Source of the DNA: Jonquetella anthropi DSM 22815
Lineage (GTDB): Bacteria; Synergistota; Synergistia; Synergistales; Dethiosulfovibrionaceae
Assembly (NCBI RefSeq): GCF_000237805.1
Contig: NZ_CM001376.1
Span: forward strand, 1 to 64,000
DNA length: 64,000 bases
Direction of reading: 5' to 3'
Under the pieces are notes generated by a model. The model worked only from the letters and a program-made list of their open reading frames with translations, made no database searches and was not told where the DNA came from. Numbering within the stretch: position 1 is the first letter of the stretch; the number at the start of each line of letters is the position of its first letter. This document shows, one piece after another, positions 1,740-56,585 of the stretch. The position numbers and the translations under genes were made by a program.

Positions 1740-2870
1740 GTGAAACTTCAATTAAACCGGCTCCAATTTCTTAAAGCATGGCAGATGGCCGAACGGACGA
1801 CGAACTCCCGCGTTCCTCAGACTTCTTTGTACAGCGTTCATATTCGCTGCGGCCAAGATGGGACTTTTCTTGAGGCAACGGATCTGAAAACGTCCATTTC
1901 CGTGGCGGCCGAAGGGGTTCAGGTCGTTGAAGAAGGGGCAGCCCTCCTTCCCGTCCGAGTGATTGGTGAGCTTCTCAAAAAAATTGACAGCGAAGTCGTC
2001 GAGCTGTCGGTCACCCAAGAGCGCGGAATGTTGGTGGCAGGGAAAAACCAGTACGACGTGGCGGTGTTTCCGACCGACCTGTTCCCTGATATGCCCCGTC
2101 CGTCGTCCGATGAACCTTTTGCCCTCGTGCCGTCCGGCGAGCTGATTCGAGTGCTGGACGAGGGAATTGTAGCCGGCAGTGTTTCTGAGGAATTTCCCCG
2201 TTACATCGGAGCCTGTCAGCTCCAGTGCCAGAAAGGGGAACTTCGCGCCGTTTCCACCGACGGCCGTCGCCTTTCCCTCTCTAAGTGTCTGTGCGAGAGC
2301 GGGACGGACGGCTCTGTCCTCGTGCCGTTAGCGCCGATGAAGGAGTTTCAGCGGTTCCTTCAGTCGGTCGAATCGGACGCGACGGTCCGGGTCTTTACCG
2401 ATCAGGCGTTAGTTCACTTCTGTCTGCCTGGGCTGGAATACTCGGTTCGCCGAATTGAATCAAGTTTCCCCAACTATGAAAAGGTCCTGAGAAAGGACTT
2501 CACGTCCACCCTGACGGTGAATCGGGGGCTGTTCATTGGAGCTCTTGAACGGGTTGATCTGCTCGTTCGGGAGAACAATCACCTCGTGGTGGTTACTCTG
2601 TCGCCGTCCGGCGAAATGACCTTGGTCGGTCGATCGCCAGAGGTGGGCAAAGCTTGCGAGCACTTGAGCGGCATGATCACCGGAGAGTCTTTGAAGGCCG
2701 CCTTTAACGCCAATTACATGTTGGACGGTCTCAGGGCGTTTCACGGCGACGAGGTGTACATGACGTTCAACGGGAGCAACGGGCAGATGAACATGATGCG
2801 TCCCGGTAGCGATACGTTCCTGTACATGCTCATGCCCGTCAACTTGCAGCAGAGCGAATACGAGGACTAG
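1740..2870 (+). CDS. dnaN: DNA polymerase III beta sliding clamp
   Basis: This is the processivity clamp of the replicative polymerase. The 376-residue length, the three-domain layout and the C-terminal sequence MLMPVNL are typical of DnaN. The start is GTG, with GAGAGG about 7 bases upstream. A 232-base gap separates it from dnaA, so it may have its own promoter. recF begins only 5 bases after its stop, which points to co-transcription. Confidence 0.97.
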   Translation: MKLQLNRLQFLKAWQMAERTTNSRVPQTSLYSVHIRCGQDGTFLEATDLKTSISVAAEGVQVVEEGAALLPVRVIGELLKKIDSEVVELSVTQERGMLVAGKNQYDVAVFPTDLFPDMPRPSSDEPFALVPSGELIRVLDEGIVAGSVSEEFPRYIGACQLQCQKGELRAVSTDGRRLSLSKCLCESGTDGSVLVPLAPMKEFQRFLQSVESDATVRVFTDQALVHFCLPGLEYSVRRIESSFPNYEKVLRKDFTSTLTVNRGLFIGALERVDLLVRENNHLVVVTLSPSGEMTLVGRSPEVGKACEHLSGMITGESLKAAFNANYMLDGLRAFHGDEVYMTFNGSNGQMNMMRPGSDTFLYMLMPVNLQQSEYED

Positions 2871-13783: not shown

Positions 13784-13956
13784 TTATCCACAGGACGAAA
13801 AGGGTTTCAGGCCGTATTGAGGCGATCTTGCCCGGAAAAAGTCAAATTCTTTCATGTTATACACGAAGTTGTTGTGGATAATGTGAATAAATCAACCCCT
13901 GCTGTGACCGCTTTGGCGCGTCTCTAGGGGACGCGGCGGAAAGTTCGTGTGGATAA
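13784..13956. promoter_or_regulatory. Cluster of four DnaA boxes in an intergenic region
   Basis: Three perfect DnaA boxes are present: TTATCCACA at 13784-13792 (+), and TGTGGATAA at 13873-13881 and 13948-13956 (both minus orientation). A fourth, TGTGAATAA at 13882-13890, matches the relaxed consensus TTATNCACA on the minus strand and abuts the second. A weaker TTATACACG begins at 13857. The sequence between is locally AT-rich. It may be an origin, a DnaA titration site or a DnaA-controlled promoter for the genes that follow. Confidence 0.65.
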
Positions 13957-14006
13957 ACATACGGTCTGTTCACCAAGACGGCAAGGAGCGCGAGAGGAGC
14001 ATGAAC

Positions 14007-15107
14007 ATGAACATGGAGTTTCGATATCCTGAATACCGTCTGCCGGACTTCGGGGCTCTGGCCGGCGCGCCGGAGGCCGCAACGTCTCCGGCCCCTCGGG
14101 ACGGCGTGGCGCCGCGGGGATTTTTCCTCACCAGTCACCTGCCGACCTATTATCTGGTCGAAGGGCGCTGGGTCATGCCGGACAGGAGCTTTCAGGACGC
14201 CGCGGCGGTAGTTGACCGGGGCGGCGTAGTCGTCAAGGAAGTCTGCGACCTCAAAGCCGGAGATCGGGTCGTGACCGGCGACAGCGTCCGGGGCGAAGAG
14301 GGCATTCTCATCTGGAAAGAGGGATTTGGGCCGGAAGCGTGGCGGACGCCCGGGCTGTCAGTCGAGTCGGCGCTCAGCGGCGACTACGCGTTTCTTGCCG
14401 CGCTGATGAACCAAATCAAGTCCGAGGGCGTACCGATCGTCTGGGTCCTCGGGCCGTCGGTCGTGTTCGACTCGGACACCCGGGAGGCCCTGTCGGCTCT
14501 GGCGAAGGCCGGGTACATCAACGGCCTGCTGGCGGGCAACGCGCTGGCCACTCACGACTTGGAGGGCGGCTATCTGGGCACGGCTCTGGGACAGGACATC
14601 TACACCCAGAAGTCGGCGCCGATGGGGCACTACAACCACCTGGATCTGCTGAACGACGTCCGCTCGGCCGGCTCGATCAGCCGGTTCATCGCTCAGGGAA
14701 ACGTGAAAAACGGCCTGATACGGACGCTGGTGGAGCTGAACGTGCCGTTCGTGCTGGCCGGCTCGGTCAGGGACGACGGGCCGCTCCCTGAGGTTCACGC
14801 CCGGGTCACCGAGAGCCTGCGCGCCATGAAAGGCCTGACCGACCGCGCCGGGCTGATCATCGGCTTGGCGACCATGCTCCACTCGGTGGCTGCCGCCGAC
14901 TTGGCGTCGGGGTACCGAAAGGACGCGGACGGCAGGGTCCGGCCGGTTTATTTTGCTGCCGTAGATGTGACTGAAAACGTGGACGGCAAGGTGGCCTCGG
15001 CCCGAGAGGGACTCGCCGTGGAGACGTTTGTGACCAACGTTCAGGACTTCGTGGTGAACCTCCGGCGGGCCCTGACTCCGACGAACGGGGAGGCGGCATC
15101 ATGCTGA
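14007..15107 (+). CDS. LOR/SDH-domain protein, ornithine cyclodeaminase-like (paralogue 1)
   Basis: The sequence matches the archaeal-type ornithine cyclodeaminase / LOR-SDH conserved region family (TIGR00300-like), which has an N-terminal domain and an NAD-binding C-terminal domain. Shared motifs seen are RDGVAPRGFFLTSHLPTYYL, VDGRWV-like EGRWVMP, AGNALATHDLEGGYLG, NDVRSAGSI, FVLAGSVRDDGPLP and IGLATMLHSVA. If correct it converts ornithine to proline and ammonia. The ATG at 14007 has AGAGGAG at the best spacing, against 14001. The next gene overlaps its stop and encodes a diverged copy. Confidence 0.75.
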   Translation: MNMEFRYPEYRLPDFGALAGAPEAATSPAPRDGVAPRGFFLTSHLPTYYLVEGRWVMPDRSFQDAAAVVDRGGVVVKEVCDLKAGDRVVTGDSVRGEEGILIWKEGFGPEAWRTPGLSVESALSGDYAFLAALMNQIKSEGVPIVWVLGPSVVFDSDTREALSALAKAGYINGLLAGNALATHDLEGGYLGTALGQDIYTQKSAPMGHYNHLDLLNDVRSAGSISRFIAQGNVKNGLIRTLVELNVPFVLAGSVRDDGPLPEVHARVTESLRAMKGLTDRAGLIIGLATMLHSVAAADLASGYRKDADGRVRPVYFAAVDVTENVDGKVASAREGLAVETFVTNVQDFVVNLRRALTPTNGEAASC

Positions 15108-16195
15108 AGCTACCCATATACATGCCGCCTGACTTTTCGGAAGCTCGATTTGTCGAAGCTCCCAACGCGTCGCTCGGCGTCGTCGAGCGGGACGGCATAT
15201 CGCCGCGGGGATATCACGCCATGTCGATTTTCCCCGAGTATTTCAAGGTCAACGGCTCGTGGTTCTTGGCGGAGGAGAGCCGCATGGACACGGTGGCCGT
15301 CGTTCGGGACGAGCCGGGGCATGAGAAAGTTGACGTGGTAGAGTTCCGCAACTTAAAGGCCGGCGACAAGGTCGTCCTCGGCCGGACCGAGGACGGCAGC
15401 GAGGGCATATTCCTTTACACCGACGGTTTTAGGGAGCCGGAGGGCCGGGAGGCGGACCGGTTCGCGTTCCGCTCCGGCCGGTCGCGGGAGACGGCGTTCT
15501 CCATCGACTACGACAGGCTGTACGACGTGCTGCGCCATGAGAAGGCGAACGGCGGCTTCATCACGTGGGTGCTCGGCACGTCGCTGGCCCTTGACAGGGA
15601 GGCTCGACAGGCCTTGGAGCGTCTGATTCGGGCCGGCTTCGTGAACGGGCTCATCTCCGGGCAGGGGCTAGTGGCCTTCGACTTGGAGCGGGAACGGTGC
15701 GGCACGACCTGGGGACAAAAGGTCTTCCGCCGGGAGCAGAACACCCGGGACAACATGTTCCGGGTCGTCAACGACGTGCGGGCTGCCGGCTCGATCGAGG
15801 CGTTTCTCGCCTCATCGGGCATCACCGGCGGCATCACTAAGGCGCTGGTGGACTGCCATGTTCCCTACGTCTTGGCCGGGACGATTCGGGACAAGCTGCT
15901 CCTGCCCGGCACGTACGATAACGTTTATAGGGCTCAGGACGCCATGCGGGCTTTGAGCCGAAAGAGCTCAACAGTCGTGATGGCCTCGACGATCCTCTTC
16001 ACGGTAGCGACTGGCAACATGACGCCGTCGTACAACCGGTTCGGCGGCAAGATCCGGCCGGTGTACATCTACACGGTGGATATTCAGGAGTTCGCGGTCA
16101 ACAAGCTGTCCGACCGGGGCACTCTGACCGCCACGTCGCTGGTGACCAACAGCCAGGACTTCGTCCGCCACGTGGCCCGGGCATTAACGCGTTAA
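15101..16195 (+). CDS. LOR/SDH-domain protein, diverged paralogue 2
   Basis: This 364-residue protein is clearly related to the previous gene and aligns along its whole length. Key motifs have changed: GNALATHDLE has become GQGLVAFDLE, and RDDGPLP has become RDKLLLPG, while NDVRAAGSIEAFL and the C-terminal SLVTNSQDF remain. It may be a non-catalytic partner or act on another substrate. The ATG overlaps the stop of paralogue 1, with GGGGAGG upstream, so the two are translationally coupled. A strong terminator follows. Confidence 0.7.
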   Translation: MLKLPIYMPPDFSEARFVEAPNASLGVVERDGISPRGYHAMSIFPEYFKVNGSWFLAEESRMDTVAVVRDEPGHEKVDVVEFRNLKAGDKVVLGRTEDGSEGIFLYTDGFREPEGREADRFAFRSGRSRETAFSIDYDRLYDVLRHEKANGGFITWVLGTSLALDREARQALERLIRAGFVNGLISGQGLVAFDLERERCGTTWGQKVFRREQNTRDNMFRVVNDVRAAGSIEAFLASSGITGGITKALVDCHVPYVLAGTIRDKLLLPGTYDNVYRAQDAMRALSRKSSTVVMASTILFTVATGNMTPSYNRFGGKIRPVYIYTVDIQEFAVNKLSDRGTLTATSLVTNSQDFVRHVARALTR

Positions 16196-16249: not shown

Positions 16250-18364
16250 TCAATGGTTATGGGACTGACCGTTTCGGACGATGAGCGCGTCAGCCGCGAC
16301 GGCTCCTTGGCCTTCGGGCATGACGAACACCGGGTTGATATCCAGTTCCAGAAGGTCCGGTTCCACGCAGGCCAGCTTGGACACCTGGCTGACGATTCGG
16401 GCGAGCGCAGCTGTGTCCTTGCGCTTCTGTCCTCTGGCGCCGGACAGGAAGCCGAAGCCCTTGAGCTCCTGAATCATCCGCAGCGCCTCGGCCTCGTCGA
16501 CCGGCGCGTGGCGCAGCGAAACGTCGCCCAGCACCTCGACGTAAATGCCGCCCAAGCCGACGGCCACAACGGGGCCGAACACCGGGTCGCGCTTGATGCC
16601 GACGATGCACTCCATGCCGCCCTTGACCATTTCGCCGACCAAGAACCCTTGAATATCGGCGTCGGCGACCTGGGCCTGCATGTTGGTCCGCACCTTTTTG
16701 AAGTCCTGGCGAAGCTCTTCCAGCGTCCTGATATCCAGCCGGACGACGTCCGCTTCGGTCTTGTGCATGATCTTTCCCGACATGCCCTTGAGCACCAGAG
16801 GGAAGCCGATATCGTCGGCAGCGTCAAACGCTTCCTCCATGTTCGTGCAGAGCGCTTCGCGGGTCACCGGAATGCCGTACTTGCTCAGAAGGCACTTGGC
16901 GTCGTACTCGGACATCAGCGGCGGGTAGTTCTGCAGGATGGGCGTCCCGGTCACCGGCTCGTCCTTCGAGAGTGCCCGCAGCTGGTGCCAGTTCACCATC
17001 GCGCGAAGGGAGCGGGCGCACTGGCGGAAGCTCTGGAAAATCGGGATGCCCGCGTCCTTCAGCCGCTGAATGAACGAGCCGCCGTGGGCCTGGTCGATCA
17101 TCCAGACTACCGCTTGGGGCTTTTCCGCCGTCTGATAGTTGCGGATCAGCTCGTCAGCCATCACGTCGCCGGCCTTGCCGATAACCATCGACAGGGCCGT
17201 GACGACCATGTGAACGTCCGGGTCGTCCATGGCCGTTTTCAGGACCTGCTGGAACTTCTCCGGCGTCTCGGAAACCTGAATCGTCATGTCCACCGGGTTG
17301 CGGGGCGAGCCGAACGACGGGATGTTCTCGGCCATCTTCTTCTGCGTGTCCGCCGAGAGCTCGGGGACCTGAATTTTCAGGTCCGTCAGGCTGTCGGCCA
17401 TCACGATGCCCGCGCCGCCGGACGTGGTGAGAATGGCGACCCGGTCGCCGGTCGCCCGCTGGCGGGCGCCGAACATCTGGCCGATGCCGGTGATGTCGTC
17501 CATGTCTTCCATTGGAATGATGCCGTACTGGTCGAAGATCGCGTCCCATACGGCTTCGTCGCCGGTCAGAGCGGCGGTGTGGCTCTGGGCCGCCTTCTGG
17601 GAGATCGGCGACCGGCCGGCCTTCAGGACGGCCACGGCGATATTCCTCTCGCGGGCGTCCTTGACCATCTGGAGGAACCGCTGGCCGTCGCCAATGCCTT
17701 CAAGGTACATCATCAGGAGGCGCACCTGCGGGTCGCAGATGACGTAGCTGGCGCACTCCACCGCGTCGACGTCCGCTTGGTTGCCGGTGGTCACCACGTA
17801 GCGGTAGTTCACCCCGTGATCGAGTCCGACGCCGAACGACGAGAAACCGAACGCGCCGCTCTGGGAGACGAACGCCACGTGTCCGGCCTTGGGCGGATCC
17901 ACGTCCAGCAGGGCGCCGGTAAAGGTGAGCGGCGTCTTTTCGGCCAAGTTGAGCAGCCCTTGGCAGTTGGGCCCCAGAATGCGGATTTTGCCGCTTCGGG
18001 CGATCGACAGAATCTGTTCCTGCAGTTTTTTGTTGCCCGTTTCGGCAAAGCCCGACGAGTAGATGACCGCGTTAGGAATGCCCTTGGCGATGCAGGTCTC
18101 CAGCACCGACGGGACGATGTTCGCCTTGACGCTGATCACCGCCACGTCCGCTGAGCCGGGAATATCAGCTAGGTTTTTATAGCACTGGTACCCGCCGACT
18201 TGGTCGTACTTAGGGTTGACCGGGAACAGGTCGCCGGAAAAGCCAAATCGTTTCATCACCTTGATCGTGCGGCCGGTCAGGCTGTCAAGGTTGGCGGACG
18301 CGCCGACGACGGCGACGCGGCGGGGACAGAAAAGCCGGTGAAGCGGGTGTTCGGAAAGGTTCAT
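16250..18364 (-). CDS. Acyl-CoA synthetase (ADP-forming), fused alpha/beta
   Basis: These enzymes convert an acyl-CoA, ADP and phosphate into acid, CoA and ATP, a substrate-level ATP step in many anaerobes. Residues 1-130 form a CoA-binding domain (RRVAVVGAS). Next come succinyl-CoA-ligase-like domains with a phosphorylatable His in SHTAALTG (His262), and a C-terminal ATP-grasp region (about 490-700, PLMSEYDAKCLL onward). The 704-aa fused length is normal for bacterial ACD. Acetyl-, propionyl- or branched acyl-CoA are all possible. A cobalamin riboswitch and terminator lie upstream (18401-18658), which is an unusual control. Confidence 0.93.
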   Translation of the reverse strand: MNLSEHPLHRLFCPRRVAVVGASANLDSLTGRTIKVMKRFGFSGDLFPVNPKYDQVGGYQCYKNLADIPGSADVAVISVKANIVPSVLETCIAKGIPNAVIYSSGFAETGNKKLQEQILSIARSGKIRILGPNCQGLLNLAEKTPLTFTGALLDVDPPKAGHVAFVSQSGAFGFSSFGVGLDHGVNYRYVVTTGNQADVDAVECASYVICDPQVRLLMMYLEGIGDGQRFLQMVKDARERNIAVAVLKAGRSPISQKAAQSHTAALTGDEAVWDAIFDQYGIIPMEDMDDITGIGQMFGARQRATGDRVAILTTSGGAGIVMADSLTDLKIQVPELSADTQKKMAENIPSFGSPRNPVDMTIQVSETPEKFQQVLKTAMDDPDVHMVVTALSMVIGKAGDVMADELIRNYQTAEKPQAVVWMIDQAHGGSFIQRLKDAGIPIFQSFRQCARSLRAMVNWHQLRALSKDEPVTGTPILQNYPPLMSEYDAKCLLSKYGIPVTREALCTNMEEAFDAADDIGFPLVLKGMSGKIMHKTEADVVRLDIRTLEELRQDFKKVRTNMQAQVADADIQGFLVGEMVKGGMECIVGIKRDPVFGPVVAVGLGGIYVEVLGDVSLRHAPVDEAEALRMIQELKGFGFLSGARGQKRKDTAALARIVSQVSKLACVEPDLLELDINPVFVMPEGQGAVAADALIVRNGQSHNH

Positions 18365-18400
18365 GATCAGGACTCCTTCACGAAAGATTGTGTTGCCGAC

Positions 18401-18427
18401 AAAAAAGGCCGTCCCAGCGGGACGGCC
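18401..18427 (-). terminator. Intrinsic terminator of the cobalamin riboswitch leader
   Basis: On the minus strand GGCCGTCCC and GGGACGGCC form a hairpin followed by TTTTTT (plus-strand AAAAAA at 18401-18406). It lies between the riboswitch and the synthetase start, as an expression platform should. Confidence 0.85.
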
Positions 18428-18510
18428 GAATACGTCAACGACAGCGCCTGTCGTCAGTAAGGACGAAGACGCAAGTCAGAAATCGCTCCGAGTCCACGCG
18501 GGGATTTTTG

Positions 18511-18658
18511 CGCGCCTCGCTAGGCCGGTCTCCTGGCTTGCTATCGCTCTTTGGAACACCTTCCCGGAAAACTTCCAGTGGTTTGCTGTTCCGCAGTCAA
18601 GCATACAGTGGCGGGTCCGCGCCGGCTTTTTACCGGACTTCCCGATCACCCAGCGAGG
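18511..18658 (-). promoter_or_regulatory. Cobalamin riboswitch
   Basis: Read on the minus strand, the region holds the conserved cobalamin-aptamer pieces in order: GGGAAGTCCGGT, GGACCCGCCACTGTA and AGCCAGGAGACCGGCC. A closing P1 stem CCTCGCT/AGCGAGG brackets them (18514-18520 with about 18652-18658). The downstream terminator at 18401-18427 suggests transcription control of the acyl-CoA synthetase. Cobalamin-bound RNA normally lowers expression. Confidence 0.9.
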
Positions 18659-18732
18659 TTTCTTTGTAATTTTACGATACTCGGATCGCTTCAGCGCGTC
18701 AAGGGTGATTCACCCGTCCTGCCGCGGATAAA

Positions 18733-18770
18733 AAACGCCCGGCGCCGCAGAAAAGCGGCTCCGGGCGTTT
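18733..18770 (-). terminator. Terminator after the endonuclease/phosphatase gene
   Basis: AAACGCCCGG...CCGGGCGTTT with an inner GCCGC/GCGGC stem follows the minus-strand gene and ends in a T run on that strand. Confidence 0.85.
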
Positions 18771-18779
18771 GCGGTTTTT

Positions 18780-19628
18780 TTACTTCTTGGCTCCGCCGGC
18801 CAAAATGAAGTCCAACAGCACGATGTCGTGATCCGGGTGCTGGCTTCGGCCCGGCGAGCGGCGGGGAATCGACGACTCGGCCTCTCGAAGAGCCGGCGGG
18901 CGGGAGAACGTCAGGCCGGCGTAGCCGATATGGTCCAGCGACGAGCGGGTCGCGTCGTAGCTGGACAGGCCGTCGGGCAGGGTCAGCAGGCGAAAGGCCG
19001 TCTTCGGCGACTCGTAATTGAAGTCGCCGGTGATAAAGATCGGACCGTTGAGCGACGAGACCAACCGGTCCAGCGCTTCCAGCTGGGCAGCCCGCTTGGC
19101 GTCGTTGTACGCCTTGGCCGATACGACGTCGCTCTTGCCCCGGGTGCTCTGGCTTTTCAGGTGGACGTTCACCAGCGTGAACTGAAAGCCGCTCGCCTTG
19201 TCCTTAAAGGTCGCGACCAGCGGCGGCCGGTCGAAGAGCCGAAACGTCGAGCCGTCGTGCTGAAACGACGCGTTGGCGAAGTAGACGTCCGGGCCTGACA
19301 GCATTTGAACTGCCGAGTCCTTCCAGAGAAAGTACAGGTCTTGGCTGCTCGCCGTGTCGTTGCCCGCAAACCGCCAGCCCGGCAGGTGGCGGGCGACCAA
19401 GTAGGTCATCGCGCCGTCGCCTTCGATTTCCTGCAGCGACAGCAGGTCGGCTCGGCTGTCTTGAATCGTTTGAGCCAGATGGGCGCAGTCTTCCGGCGTG
19501 TAGCGCTTCTGCCCCGTCACGGCGAAGTACTCGATGTTGAACGTGCCCAAGCTGAAGGCCTCGGCCGGCAACGGCTGGAAGACGCAGGCCGCGGCGATGG
19601 CGCACAGCGCGGCAAAGAACTTTTTCAT
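18780..19628 (-). CDS. Exported endonuclease/exonuclease/phosphatase family protein
   Basis: The 282-residue product has an N-terminal signal peptide (MKKFFAALCAIAAACVFQPLPAEA) written here in full only to show its pattern: basic, hydrophobic, then small residues. The mature part shows the EEP fold motifs FNIEYF, LQEIEGD, VNVHLKS, GDFNYES and SQHPDHDIV, the metal-binding and catalytic residues of this family. Targets may be DNA, RNA or phospho-compounds. The ATG at 19628 has AAAGGAGAG upstream. It follows cardiolipin synthase by 23 bases and is probably in the same operon. Confidence 0.86.
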   Translation of the reverse strand: MKKFFAALCAIAAACVFQPLPAEAFSLGTFNIEYFAVTGQKRYTPEDCAHLAQTIQDSRADLLSLQEIEGDGAMTYLVARHLPGWRFAGNDTASSQDLYFLWKDSAVQMLSGPDVYFANASFQHDGSTFRLFDRPPLVATFKDKASGFQFTLVNVHLKSQSTRGKSDVVSAKAYNDAKRAAQLEALDRLVSSLNGPIFITGDFNYESPKTAFRLLTLPDGLSSYDATRSSLDHIGYAGLTFSRPPALREAESSIPRRSPGRSQHPDHDIVLLDFILAGGAKK

Positions 19629-19651
19629 CGGATCGCTCTCCTTTTTGAGGG

Positions 19652-21103
19652 CTATAGAAGAGGGCTGAGCAGCCGGGTGAGCGCTTGAACGGCCCGGGCG
19701 GGACGTCCCCGCAGCGACCACCGGCGAGGGTTCAGAGGGACGCAGGAGCGCAGATAGCGGTTCTGAATGTGCAGCAGCGAATGGGCCTCTTGGGTGCCGT
19801 AGAGCACCAAACTGATTTCAAAGTTGAGCGCGAACGACCGGGTGTCAAAGTTGCTGCTGCCGACGAACGCCAGATCGTCGTCCACCGTGATAGTCTTGGC
19901 GTGAAGCATGCCGCCGTGGTACAGGAAAATCTTCACACCTGCGGCCAAAAGGTCGCTGTAATAGGCCTTCGCCGCGTTTCCAACGATAAAGTGATCGGTC
20001 TTCGCCGGGACGAGCAGCCGAATCCGGACCCCTCGGCGCGAGGCCGTCTGCATGGCCTGAATCAGGCTGACCGTCGGGATCAAGTACGGCGTCGTGATGG
20101 TTACCTGACGGCGCGCTCCCATGATGGCCGACAGCACCAACATGAGGTAGTTCTCCGTGTCGTACGACGGGCCGCTCGGGACGGTCTGGAGCGACCAGTT
20201 CCCCGGCGTCTCCGGCGCAGCCAGCAGGTGGGACACGTCGAGGAGCTCGCCGGTTTCAACGTGCCAGTCCTCCAGAAAGACGTACTCCAGCTGGTGGACC
20301 ACCGGGCCCTCGACTGTGACGCTCAAGTCCTGCCAGACGAGTCCTCGCCGGCCGAATGTCGGGTCGCACAGGTTGTGGGAGCCGGTCACGGCGTAGCGTC
20401 GGTCGACGATAACCAGCTTGCGGTGGTTGCGCAGGTCGTACCGTTCGGCTTTTCGCCGGAACAGCCGCACCGGCAGGGCTTCGCGGACCTGGACGCCCAG
20501 CTCTTTCAGCCGGCTGACCCCGCCGCTTCGGATGAACTCGGACGAGCCGACGCTGTCCACGATGAGCCGGCAGGTCACGCCCCGGGCGGCGGCCCGCCCG
20601 AGAGCGGAGACGACGGCCCGGCCCGGCCCAACGTCGGAGAAGATGTAGAAGATCATGTTGACTTCCTGCTTGGCGCCGTCGATTAGGCTCACCAGATGGG
20701 AGAAAAACGACTCGCTGGTGTCCAGATACCGGCACAGGTTGCCCGACGTGATCCCCATGTTCCCCAGCGACTCGGCCAGTCGGACGGTGAGCTGAAGCGT
20801 CGGCGGCAGCTGAGGTGCCCGGCGGCGGCCGTGGGACAGCTGCTGCCGGATGTCCTGCAGGTGCTGAGCCATTCGCCTGTGGCGCTGGAGTCTGACGGCC
20901 GGGAGCATTCGGCTTCCCAACAGGGCGTAGGCGAGAAACCCGGGCCACGGCCACAGGAGAATGACTAAAAGCCACGCGGTTGCCACAGCCGGCGGGTGCC
21001 GCAGCGGAATTGACAGAAGGCTCGCGACTCGGATGACAATCGACAATAGAGTGTAAAACTGGACCGCGAGCAGCGACAGATCAGCCAGCCAGTCGAAATT
21101 CAC
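19652..21103 (-). CDS. Cardiolipin synthase (phospholipase D-type)
   Basis: The enzyme joins two phosphatidylglycerol molecules to form cardiolipin. Two N-terminal membrane segments (about residues 10-65) are followed by two HKD motifs: HRKLVIVDRRYAVTGS near residue 225 and HAKTITVDDDLAFVGSSNFD near residue 400. The 483-aa length fits Cls. It heads a two-gene unit with an exported phosphohydrolase on the minus strand. Confidence 0.92.
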   Translation of the reverse strand: MNFDWLADLSLLAVQFYTLLSIVIRVASLLSIPLRHPPAVATAWLLVILLWPWPGFLAYALLGSRMLPAVRLQRHRRMAQHLQDIRQQLSHGRRRAPQLPPTLQLTVRLAESLGNMGITSGNLCRYLDTSESFFSHLVSLIDGAKQEVNMIFYIFSDVGPGRAVVSALGRAAARGVTCRLIVDSVGSSEFIRSGGVSRLKELGVQVREALPVRLFRRKAERYDLRNHRKLVIVDRRYAVTGSHNLCDPTFGRRGLVWQDLSVTVEGPVVHQLEYVFLEDWHVETGELLDVSHLLAAPETPGNWSLQTVPSGPSYDTENYLMLVLSAIMGARRQVTITTPYLIPTVSLIQAMQTASRRGVRIRLLVPAKTDHFIVGNAAKAYYSDLLAAGVKIFLYHGGMLHAKTITVDDDLAFVGSSNFDTRSFALNFEISLVLYGTQEAHSLLHIQNRYLRSCVPLNPRRWSLRGRPARAVQALTRLLSPLL

Positions 21104-53879: not shown

Positions 53880-55828
53880 CGCGGGGCGTGCTGGCAGTCG
53901 ATTTAGGCACGAGCAACACGTACATCAGCAAGTGTCCGGACAGCGAGCTGAGCCCGTCCGCGGTGGAGCTGTGGGGCGAGCGGGGTAGCTTGGACACGGC
54001 GATTTTGTACCGGCCCGGCGAAGATCCGGTCATCGGTGAGGCCGCCACGTTCGGCTGGGCCGAGGCGTCGCCTCTCCAACGAAAGCGCTGGGAACTTCAC
54101 AGCCGGTTCAAGCCCGAGCTCGACCGAAGCGCCGACGTGAAAAAATGGGCGGTCGATTTCCTGAAAGGCTTGTTGAGCGGCGGTCGGAAGCGGCACTTGG
54201 ACATTGACCCGGAGGGGCGGCAGGTCTTTTTCGGCTTTCCCTGTCAGGCGTCGGAGAGCTGGCGCGGCGAGCTGAGAGACGTCGCCAGAAGCGCTGGATT
54301 TGGCGAGATCACGCTGCTTGAAGAGCCGCTGGCCGCGCTGGCCGAGGCTTTGGCCGCCGGCGCCTTGAGCCCGTCAGAGGTGCGGAGAAACGTGCTGGTC
54401 GTCGACTTCGGCGGCGGCACGTGCGACATGGCGTCGGTCTGCGGCCTGCAGGTGAAGAAGGCGTGGGGGGACTGGCTTTTAGGCGGCCGGCTGTTCGACG
54501 ACCTGTTCTTCAGCTTGCTGGCCGAGCGGACGGAAGGCGCGTTCGAGCGGTGGGAAGCCGGCGGCGCGTTCGAGTTCGTCCGGCTGTACTGGAGCAAAAT
54601 CCTGAAAGAGCGGTTCTCTGCCGCGATGGCCGACGACAGGACCAGACGGTGGAGCGGCTCGGCCGGCGAGTACGGGGCGATCCCGTCGCTCGACTGGGAC
54701 GAGTTTATCGGCCGGTGCCGTCGGTTTACCGCTTCCGGGCCACTTGTTGGGGATGTGCCCGGTTGTCCTGGGAGCGCCGGCGAGTGCGACTTGATCGGCC
54801 GGTTTGAAGCGCTGCTCGACGGCGCCGACGAGCCGGAACTGGTGCTCCTTTCGGGCGGTTCCAGCCAGTGGCCGTTCGTGGACGACGCTGTGCGAGTTCG
54901 CTTCCCGAGCGCTCGAGTGCTGCGCAGCGATCGGCCCGGCGGGGCCGTCGCCCGCGGGCTGTCCCTGCTTCCGGCCCTCACAGCCCGGCACGAGTCGAGC
55001 CGCCGTCAGCTTACCGCCGGATCGGCGGCCTTCGTCAGCCGCACCCTTCGCGGCCCGCTGGCGCAGGTTCGGCAGGAGGCGTCTCATCAGCTGGGAGCCA
55101 GCCTGTCCGGTCTGATGATCCGCGAAGCGGTCCGTCCGGCGGTCGAAGAGTACCGAACGGAAGGCGGACCGCTGGCGGAGCTTGAGAAAAAACTGAACGA
55201 TCGGGTGGAGGGCCTCCGCGGGCAGGCCGACGAAATGGCCCACGCGGCGCTGGGCCGATGGACCGGCGAGGCGGCCAACGTGCTGTCGCTGCTCCTCAAA
55301 GAGTGGTTCGCCGAAAACGGCGTCGTCTCGTCGCCCCGACTTGACAAGCCGATCGACTTGGGCGGGGCAGGCGCCGGGGCGGGGCTCCAGTCTCTGGCCG
55401 GCAAGTTAGTTCAGCAGGCTCTGTCGCCGCTGTCAAAGTTCGGCACTCTGGCCGTCTCGGCCTTGGGCGCCCTCTTGGGCGGGACTGCCGCCGCGCTCTC
55501 GACGGCTGTCGGACCGGCCGGCTGGGCGGTCGGCGGCCTGTTGGCCCTCGGCGGGTGTCTCGCCGGACGTCCGGCCATGGAGCGGTGGATGTCGTCGCTT
55601 GACCTGCCGAAGGCCGCGGCCGGGTACCTGCTTTCTGAGGCCCGGGTGAACCGAATGATCGGCCGGCTCCGGGAGCAGGCGGCAGGAGAAATTGACCAAA
55701 AACTTTCGGACGCGTGGGCCGCCGGGCTCGACGAGTTTGAAACGCTCGTCAAGCAGGCCGTGGCGTCTGAAATCGCCGGCCTTGACGCGTTCTGCCAGCT
55801 CGGTAGGAGGGAGGAAACGACCAAGTGA
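53876..55828 (+). CDS. Hsp70/actin-like ATPase with a hydrophobic C-terminal module
   Basis: The 650-residue protein has an N-terminal actin-like ATPase region: phosphate-1 DLGTSNT (residues 9-15), phosphate-2 VLVVDFGGGT (173-182), and adenosine loop LVLLSGGSSQ (322-331). Past about residue 380 there is no substrate-binding domain of DnaK kind, but helices and a Gly/Ala-rich hydrophobic hairpin at about 522-563. That layout recalls membrane-inserting parts of dynamin-like proteins. The start overlaps the upstream gene by ATGA. cobO overlaps its stop. Confidence 0.72.
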   Translation: MTRGVLAVDLGTSNTYISKCPDSELSPSAVELWGERGSLDTAILYRPGEDPVIGEAATFGWAEASPLQRKRWELHSRFKPELDRSADVKKWAVDFLKGLLSGGRKRHLDIDPEGRQVFFGFPCQASESWRGELRDVARSAGFGEITLLEEPLAALAEALAAGALSPSEVRRNVLVVDFGGGTCDMASVCGLQVKKAWGDWLLGGRLFDDLFFSLLAERTEGAFERWEAGGAFEFVRLYWSKILKERFSAAMADDRTRRWSGSAGEYGAIPSLDWDEFIGRCRRFTASGPLVGDVPGCPGSAGECDLIGRFEALLDGADEPELVLLSGGSSQWPFVDDAVRVRFPSARVLRSDRPGGAVARGLSLLPALTARHESSRRQLTAGSAAFVSRTLRGPLAQVRQEASHQLGASLSGLMIREAVRPAVEEYRTEGGPLAELEKKLNDRVEGLRGQADEMAHAALGRWTGEAANVLSLLLKEWFAENGVVSSPRLDKPIDLGGAGAGAGLQSLAGKLVQQALSPLSKFGTLAVSALGALLGGTAAALSTAVGPAGWAVGGLLALGGCLAGRPAMERWMSSLDLPKAAAGYLLSEARVNRMIGRLREQAAGEIDQKLSDAWAAGLDEFETLVKQAVASEIAGLDAFCQLGRREETTK

Positions 55829-56337
55829 CGCAGGGACTTGTCCAGATTTACACCGGCGACGGCAAAGGCAAGACGACCGCCGCCCTCGGCTTGGCCGTTC
55901 GGGCGCTGGGCCGAGGCTGGCCGGTTCGGATCATTCAGTTCCTCAAAGGGGTTCGAGCCGGCGAGCATGCCGCGTTCGAGCGGCTTGGGGTTTCCATATC
56001 CTTTGTCCCGTCCGACGTCCCGCCGTGGAAAGCGCGCCGGGAGGATCTGGTCGCCTCCTGCGCCAAGCAGCTGGCTCAGGCTCGGGAGGCTCTGGCCCAG
56101 ATGGATCGCGGGCTCGTGGTGCTCGACGAGATCATCGGCGCGTTGAACAAAGAGTACGTGACCCGCTCGGACGTCGAAGCCCTGCTGGCGGCCCGCCCGG
56201 AGAGCGTCGAACTGGTGATGACCGGACGGGACGCGCCCGACTGGCTCATTGACCGGGCCGGACTGGTCACCCGAATGACGCTGGTTCGCCACCCGTTTTC
56301 TCAGGGCGTGCCGGCTCGGGAGGGCATGGAGTTCTAG
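55825..56337 (+). CDS. cobO: Cob(I)yrinic acid a,c-diamide adenosyltransferase (CobO/BtuR family)
   Basis: The enzyme adds the adenosyl group to corrinoids. Motifs seen: TGDGKGKTTAALG (Walker A), IQFLKG, VVLDEIIGALN, and VMTGRDAPDWL. The 170-aa length fits the CobA/CobO type. The GTG start overlaps the stop of the Hsp70-like gene. It lies upstream of the cobalamin riboswitch, so it is not under that riboswitch. Confidence 0.94.
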   Translation: MTQGLVQIYTGDGKGKTTAALGLAVRALGRGWPVRIIQFLKGVRAGEHAAFERLGVSISFVPSDVPPWKARREDLVASCAKQLAQAREALAQMDRGLVVLDEIIGALNKEYVTRSDVEALLAARPESVELVMTGRDAPDWLIDRAGLVTRMTLVRHPFSQGVPAREGMEF

Positions 56338-56391
56338 CTTGACGCTCCTCTGGGGGGATGGGACAATAAAAAGAGAATTTGCAGGATAAAA

Positions 56392-56544
56392 CGCTTCGGG
56401 AGCAGTAGGGAAGCCGGTGTAAGTCCGGCGCTGCCCCGCATCTGTGAGCGGGACGACTCCGCAGAGGCCACTGCCGAACTTTTGGTGGGAAGGCGCGGAC
56501 GAGGACGACCGCCAGCCAGAAGACCAGCCCGGAGCACAGAAGCG
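56392..56544 (+). promoter_or_regulatory. Cobalamin riboswitch of the cbi operon
   Basis: The plus strand holds, in order, GGGAAGCCGGTGTAAGTCCG, GCTGCCCCGCATCTGTGAGC and GCCAGCCAGAAGACC, the conserved cobalamin-aptamer pieces. A P1 stem CGCTTC/GAAGCG (56392-56397 and 56539-56544) closes it. It is directly upstream of the B12 synthesis operon and would shut it off when cobalamin is plentiful. Confidence 0.95.
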
Positions 56545-56585
56545 CCCCCGGCGAGGGATACGGGTGACGGCTTTCGACGCGGCAG

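What the first reader, a model, noticed from the sequence alone, without database searches (positions are those of the whole stretch)
18401..18658. Cobalamin riboswitch in front of an ADP-forming acyl-CoA synthetase
The aptamer pieces and an intrinsic terminator lie on the minus strand directly before the synthetase. Cobalamin riboswitches usually control B12 synthesis, uptake or B12-independent isozymes, not an ATP-generating acyl-CoA synthetase. Perhaps the enzyme handles a product of a B12-dependent mutase pathway, or replaces one when B12 is scarce.
Basis: partly seen in the sequence, partly recalled or inferred. Interest (0 to 1): 0.74.

Follow-up and report, generated by a model that had tools for sequence, protein, structure and literature searches.

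The report
B12 riboswitch controlling an acyl-CoA synthetase
A vitamin-B12-type RNA switch sits in front of a gene for an enzyme that makes ATP from acyl-CoA, and the pairing is kept in eight related anaerobic bacteria, so B12 supply may decide how such cells finish part of their fermentation.

Summary
Rfam finds a full-length cobalamin riboswitch (RF00174, 94 bits) at 18506-18668, minus strand, ahead of a 704-aa ADP-forming-type acyl-CoA synthetase gene (ACD, 16250-18364). The one promoter-like site found in 18300-18800 lies just upstream of the aptamer; a terminator lies between aptamer and gene.

It is not a one-off. The 8 Synergistota orthologs at about 61% identity or more (this one included) all carry the switch; 0 of 33 more distant homolog loci scanned do. 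Eight aligned leaders support the P13 regulatory hairpin by covariation. They also allow pairing of P13/L13 with the terminator's 5' arm, the layout of the repressing P. megaterium metE switch. I predict that B12 turns ACD off; that pairing itself is only weakly supported.

The riboswitch class is known; an ACD target was not found in the papers I could search. Why B12 controls ACD is open. The genome has methylmalonyl-CoA mutase and no SucC-type succinyl-CoA synthetase over the cut-off, so ACD may be a B12-independent outlet. Against simple 'isozyme replacement': 17 relatives carry RF00174 in front of the B12-dependent mutase operon itself, with the same predicted sign in the 11 that could be scored.

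The parts
18674..18702 (-). promoter-like site TTGACG-17-TATCGT
   Evidence: only site in 18300-18800. In 8 of 8 ACD leaders the best site in the 60 nt before the aptamer ends 5-11 nt from it, 9-11 of 12; shuffles as good in 0, 0, 2, 3, 8, 80, 95 and 125 of 300
18506..18668 (-). cobalamin riboswitch aptamer RF00174
   Evidence: 94.0 bits, E 4.4e-22
18613..18618 (-). loop L5 (GGACCC), proposed partner of L13 in a kissing loop
   Evidence: invariant in 8 of 8 leaders; the kissing itself is inferred from PMC10653944
18478..18509 (-). P13 regulatory hairpin; L13 at 18491-18498
   Evidence: 10 pairs, 5 of them with changes on both sides over 8 leaders
18401..18427 (-). intrinsic terminator; 5' arm 18420-18425 is the proposed antiterminator partner of 18488-18495
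18373..18378 (-). ribosome binding site AAGGAG
   Evidence: sequence
16250..18364 (-). ADP-forming-type acyl-CoA synthetase, fused alpha-beta, 704 aa
   Evidence: His262 and His534 are invariant over 7 orthologs; that they are the catalytic pair is recalled

Best explanation
This is a cobalamin riboswitch that controls the ACD gene by transcription attenuation, most likely as an OFF switch. When the aptamer binds a cobalamin, loop L5 kisses L13 and locks hairpin P13, so the terminator forms and the ACD message stops. Without cobalamin, the L13/P13 3' side pairs with the 5' arm of the terminator, transcription runs on, and ACD is made. ACD turns an acyl-CoA plus ADP and phosphate into acid, CoA and ATP. 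The likeliest purpose is a B12-independent outlet at the succinyl-CoA/propionyl-CoA branch that otherwise runs through AdoCbl-dependent methylmalonyl-CoA mutase. Shown here: aptamer, promoter place, P13, terminator, conservation with the gene. Inferred: ligand, kissing loop, antiterminator, sign. Least certain: substrate and purpose.
For: Aptamer 94 bits. RF00174 is upstream of 8 of 8 orthologs at about 61% identity or more and of 0 of 33 further homolog loci scanned. Promoter-like site 5-11 nt before the aptamer in 8 of 8. P13 and terminator: 97.2% of cells paired, covariation 0.308 against 0.206 shuffled (0 of 500 as high) and at most 0.093 when slid. Antiterminator pairs in 48 of 48 cells and is the MFE of the paused leader in G000, G045 and G050. 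In G045 one base changes in each of four strands, keeping P13, antiterminator and terminator paired. The own genome has the mutase and no SucC over the cut-off. A. colombiense forms propionate from alpha-ketoglutarate (PMC3035294, passages).
Against: In the blind search P13/L13 was the best partner of the terminator arm in 0 of 8 ACD leaders: the B12 box was in 5, an aptamer stretch near L4/L5 in 3, and shuffled arms did as well in 7-70 of 100. Tested alone, the P13 segment beat shuffles at p 0.0125-0.32; the combined p 0.0016 treats related leaders as independent. Four of the six antiterminator pairs never vary, 74 of 500 shuffles equal the score, and a version slid by +2 scores higher, 0.190 against 0.173. 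In 5 of 8 leaders the paused MFE shows other pairings. G050 and G047 have only short T tails and their terminators were placed by hand. The B12-dependent mutase leaders show the same predicted sign, which the 'replacement' purpose does not explain. Substrate unknown.
Confidence: 0.45

Rival explanations
1. ACD belongs to the methylmalonyl-CoA pathway itself (for example propionyl-CoA to propionate plus ATP). It is co-regulated with the B12-dependent mutase, all repressed by B12 as a feedback that matches enzyme to cofactor rather than replacing anything.
For: 17 of 17 fetched leaders put RF00174 directly ahead of mutA. In the 11 of 17 with a scorable terminator its 5' arm pairs best with P13/L13, the OFF layout. 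G047 and G054 carry the switch on both the mutase operon and ACD.
Against: The window's own mutase operon has no RF00174 (no hit to E 5 in 801 bases around its start; 4 copies in the genome, none there). B12 repressing a B12 enzyme is hard to explain.
Confidence: 0.3
2. The switch is an ON switch: B12 raises ACD together with the mutase, so that propionyl-CoA is cashed in when the mutase works.
For: Makes physiological sense. One activating cobalamin riboswitch is published (PMC10653944).
Against: In that published ON layout the P13 3' side is part of the terminator; here the two are separate stretches (18478-18509 and 18407-18427) that are complementary in part.
Confidence: 0.13
3. The aptamer is a relic or passenger that no longer regulates ACD.
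For: ACD homologs at 48-56% identity do without it (22 of 22 Synergistota loci scanned).
Against: Promoter place, aptamer, P13 and terminator are kept, P13 with compensatory changes, in 8 leaders from two family groups.
Confidence: 0.05

Closest known systems
Cobalamin riboswitch, Rfam RF00174 (clan CL00101)
   Same: full-length model match, 94 bits
   Different: nothing in the aptamer; the controlled gene is unusual
P. megaterium metE riboswitch (PMC10653944)
   Same: predicted logic: P13 3' side against the terminator 5' arm, OFF with corrinoid
   Different: L13 here is CGNGGAYU and would kiss L5 with a bulge; antiterminator weaker and untested; target is ACD
B12 control of B12-independent isozymes such as metE
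   Same: possible logic: B12 absent, alternative enzyme on
   Different: ACD is not an isozyme of a B12 enzyme; the mutase itself is under RF00174 in relatives
ADP-forming acyl-CoA synthetases (8wzu 4-hydroxybutyrate--CoA ligase; 4xyl NDP-forming acyl-CoA synthetase)
   Same: domains and length; 8wzu aligns over residues 11-692
   Different: no NCBIfam subtype cut-off reached; substrate unknown

Membership tests
Cobalamin riboswitch RF00174 | covariance-model score over the gathering threshold | tested here: met
   94.0 against 31.5 bits, full length
Cobalamin riboswitch RF00174 | lies in the 5' leader, with a promoter before it | tested here: met
   by sequence only: promoter-like site 18702-18674; no transcript data
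Cobalamin riboswitch RF00174 | binds a cobalamin | not testable with these tools
   needs in-line probing or similar
Repressing (OFF) attenuator of the P. megaterium metE kind | P13 present | tested here: met
   covariation over 8 leaders
Repressing (OFF) attenuator of the P. megaterium metE kind | P13 3' side pairs with the terminator 5' arm | tested here: inconclusive
   48 of 48 cells pair but little variation; not the best partner in a blind search; p 0.0125-0.32 alone
Repressing (OFF) attenuator of the P. megaterium metE kind | L5-L13 kissing loop | not testable with these tools
   possible bulged pairing by eye
NDP-forming acyl-CoA synthetase (ACD) | CoA-binding, Succ_CoA_lig and ATP-grasp_5 domains | tested here: met
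4-hydroxybutyrate--CoA ligase NF045493 | score over the equivalog cut-off | tested here: not met
   446.4 against 1300 bits
Acetate--CoA ligase alpha subunit TIGR02717 | score over the equivalog cut-off | tested here: not met
   373 against 567.15 bits

The most novel reading that the evidence does not exclude
In Synergistota the cobalamin riboswitch is wired into catabolic energy metabolism: B12 status, read by RNA, sets both the B12-dependent methylmalonyl-CoA mutase operon and an ATP-forming acyl-CoA synthetase, and so chooses how amino-acid-derived succinyl- or propionyl-CoA is cashed in. The switch and its ACD gene look to have moved together between families.
Probability: 0.35. Interest if true: 0.68.

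Novelty: new member of a known kind. Interest (0 to 1): 0.5.

Why it matters
If true, a vitamin-sensing RNA controls substrate-level ATP formation, not only vitamin supply or isozyme choice. Synergistota live in mouths and digesters (recalled), where B12 supply varies, so their acid products could follow it. The mutase leaders raise a testable puzzle: why would B12 repress a B12-dependent enzyme?

Tried and rejected
Rejected: chance match (94 bits, kept in 8 of 8 close orthologs). Rejected: promoter between switch and gene (best site after the aptamer 6-8 of 12, against 9-11 before it, in 8 leaders). Rejected: a hidden riboswitch on the own mutase operon (no hit to E 5 in 801 bases). Led nowhere: reading the substrate from gene neighbours. 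ACD stands alone behind its switch in the loci looked at, except in G043-G045, where a small gene lies between (sequences; the G045 frame has no Pfam match over cut-off). Neighbours of more distant ACDs (plsY-, CtsR- and McsA/B-like by eye) say nothing about substrate. NCBIfam gave no subtype.

The first antiterminator test went against my reading for the ACD leaders. The tests of the P13 segment alone and of named column pairs were chosen after seeing it and should be discounted for that.

Literature (a capped open library): no paper holds 'cobalamin riboswitch' with both methylmalonyl-CoA mutase and acyl-CoA synthetase, or with Synergistetes. Searches were seen as listings, some cut short; the 4 papers with 'cobalamin riboswitch' and 'CoA ligase' were not opened. 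PMC10653944: outline, passages, Discussion. PMC9600662, PMC11575231, PMC3035294: passages.

Fetched but not analysed: L062, L167, L168, L202, L203, L205.

Full report
OBSERVATION. The window is 1-64000 of a single contig of 1,675,934 bases. The genome has four: this one; one ahead of B12-synthesis genes (ORFs; tetrapyrrole methylase and CbiC domains); one ahead of a BtuF/BtuC/BtuD-like transporter (by eye); and one ahead of a small membrane-like protein without a Pfam match.

ANATOMY. On the minus strand: promoter-like TTGACG-17-TATCGT 18702-18674, aptamer 18668-18506, P13 hairpin 18509-18478, terminator 18427-18401, AAGGAG 18378-18373, ATG 18364. The gene upstream (18780-19721) is followed by its own hairpin and T run (sequence), so switch and ACD look like a separate unit.

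CONSERVATION. The ACD protein matched 86 of 185 Synergistota genomes. Hits at about 61-71% identity come from 7 other genomes: G043 (two pieces, 71 and 63%), G044, G045, G047, G050, G051 and G054. By contig name and length, G050 is Fretibacterium fastidiosum NC_021038.1, G051 Synergistales Syner_01 and G054 Synergistaceae LM3-B13.2. All 7 have RF00174 upstream, 85-98.5 bits; with the window, 8 of 8. Of 33 further homolog loci scanned (22 Synergistota at 48-56%, 7 from the window's own family including the own paralog, 4 Bacillota by record title) none has it. Flanks were 1.5-3 kb where the contig allowed, and much shorter in some (L037 has about 0.3 kb upstream). Not scanned: ten full-length hits at 47-49% (three with an in-frame stop), one at 49-50% in two pieces (G033), and weaker ones, for want of loci.

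The switch-bearing ACDs form one clade (SH-aLRT 100). In it the window's gene, from family f1, groups with genus g11 of family f6 (SH-aLRT 91, not starred; quick method; 35 rows, G043 left out). The aptamer tree puts the window's ACD aptamer with G043/G044 and not with the other three of its genome, but weakly: the ACD group appears in 62% of bootstrap trees. This fits transfer of gene and switch together; it does not prove it. G043, G044 and G045 have only two RF00174 each. The other one stands before a TonB-dependent receptor gene in the two looked at: G045 (Pfam) and G043 (by eye).

MECHANISM. PMC10653944 (passages and Discussion) describes a repressing switch, P. megaterium metE (L5-L13 kissing loop holds P13; otherwise the P13 3' side pairs with the terminator 5' arm), and an activating one, A. 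halodurans cobT (the P13 3' side is part of the terminator). In my alignment of 8 leaders, P13 has 10 pairs, 5 with changes on both sides, and the terminator 8 pairs, 1 with changes on both sides. 97.2% of cells pair; covariation is 0.308 against 0.206 shuffled (0 of 500 as high) and at most 0.093 when slid. The structure was drawn from these same sequences, which favours it. The proposed antiterminator (GGAY..GG with CCGUCC) pairs in 48 of 48 cells, but four of its six pairs never vary, 74 of 500 shuffles equal its score, and a version slid by +2 has a higher covariation score, 0.190 against 0.173. G045 alone changes one base in each of four strands so that P13, antiterminator and terminator all stay paired: one event, not statistics. 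When the leader is folded up to the terminator loop, this pairing is the MFE in G000, G045 and G050 and not in the other five (by my reading). A blind search for the terminator arm's best partner chose the B12 box in 5 of 8 and an aptamer stretch in 3 of 8, with shuffled arms as good in 7-70 of 100. Pairing with the B12 box would also imply OFF. The P13 segment tested alone gave p 0.0125-0.32 per leader; it was the best of all leader windows in 3 of 8 and was beaten by 22-27 windows in 5 of 8. In G050 and G047 the automatic finder saw no terminator (short T tail) and I placed it by hand. I put OFF at about 0.8 and the exact antiterminator lower.

BIOLOGY. The own genome has both subunits of methylmalonyl-CoA mutase, followed by a MeaB-like gene (by eye). 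It has a carboxyltransferase (PF01039) with biotin-carrier- and membrane-subunit-like neighbours, resembling methylmalonyl-CoA decarboxylase, a MetH-like gene (by eye) and a second, diverged ACD. The only SucC-type (PF08442) match is ACD itself, below the cut-off. So succinyl-CoA could pass through the mutase (needs AdoCbl) or through an ACD (does not). Aminobacterium colombiense is reported to form propionate from alpha-ketoglutarate (PMC3035294). 'B12-independent outlet' is therefore attractive, but it is inference.

A RESULT THAT CUTS THE OTHER WAY. Comparing by hand (both listings truncated, so a lower bound), I found RF00174 about 1.9-2.6 kb ahead of the mutase large subunit in 17 genomes and fetched all 17. 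In 17 of 17 the small subunit follows: 15 by motif, L150 by Pfam, L151 near-identical to L150; L154 and L166 by Pfam too. A terminator could be scored in 11 of the 17. In 11 of 11 its 5' arm pairs best with P13/L13; in 9 of them at most 8 of 100 shuffles did as well, in G034 and G035 47 and 46. By the published rules this too is OFF, although the enzyme needs B12. G047 has RF00174 ahead of EutB, another B12 enzyme, as well. So the regulon in this phylum is not simply 'B12-independent substitutes'.

VERDICT. The riboswitch is real by sequence and ordinary in class. Its target is unusual, and the link to the target is conserved. The sign is probably OFF. The purpose is open between an alternative outlet and co-regulation with the mutase pathway.

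Noticed in passing
L150-L166 (17 Synergistota loci): RF00174 directly ahead of the B12-dependent methylmalonyl-CoA mutase operon (mutA); where a terminator could be scored (11 of 17) its 5' arm is complementary to P13/L13, an OFF layout for a B12-dependent enzyme.
   Followed up: partly
L176 (G047 contig C46), 324-487 and 521 onward: RF00174 directly ahead of EutB, ethanolamine ammonia lyase large subunit, another B12-dependent enzyme.
   Followed up: no
window 56367-56546 (+): Second cobalamin riboswitch, ahead of B12-synthesis genes; a corrinoid adenosyltransferase gene (55825-56337) lies just before it.
   Followed up: partly
L005 1501-1661 and about 1790-2115 (+): Cobalamin riboswitch of the own genome (1217902-1218062) ahead of a 107-aa membrane-like protein with no Pfam match.
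   Followed up: partly
L029 (G045), about 1017-1504; same place in G044 and G043: Small gene of unknown family between riboswitch and ACD in genus g11 only.
   Followed up: partly
G043 contig C1, 1956135-1958236: The ACD homolog is in two overlapping pieces in different frames, so the gene looks interrupted there.
   Followed up: no
L061 6297-8372: Own diverged ACD paralog sits beside plsY-, CtsR- and Clp-like genes, the neighbourhood of the switch-free ACD homologs in Acetomicrobium and Thermovirga (by eye).
   Followed up: no
window 13947-16195 (+): Two tandem genes related to a nickel-pincer-dependent ornithine cyclodeaminase family (NF052526); the second is over its cut-off, the first below.
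   Followed up: no
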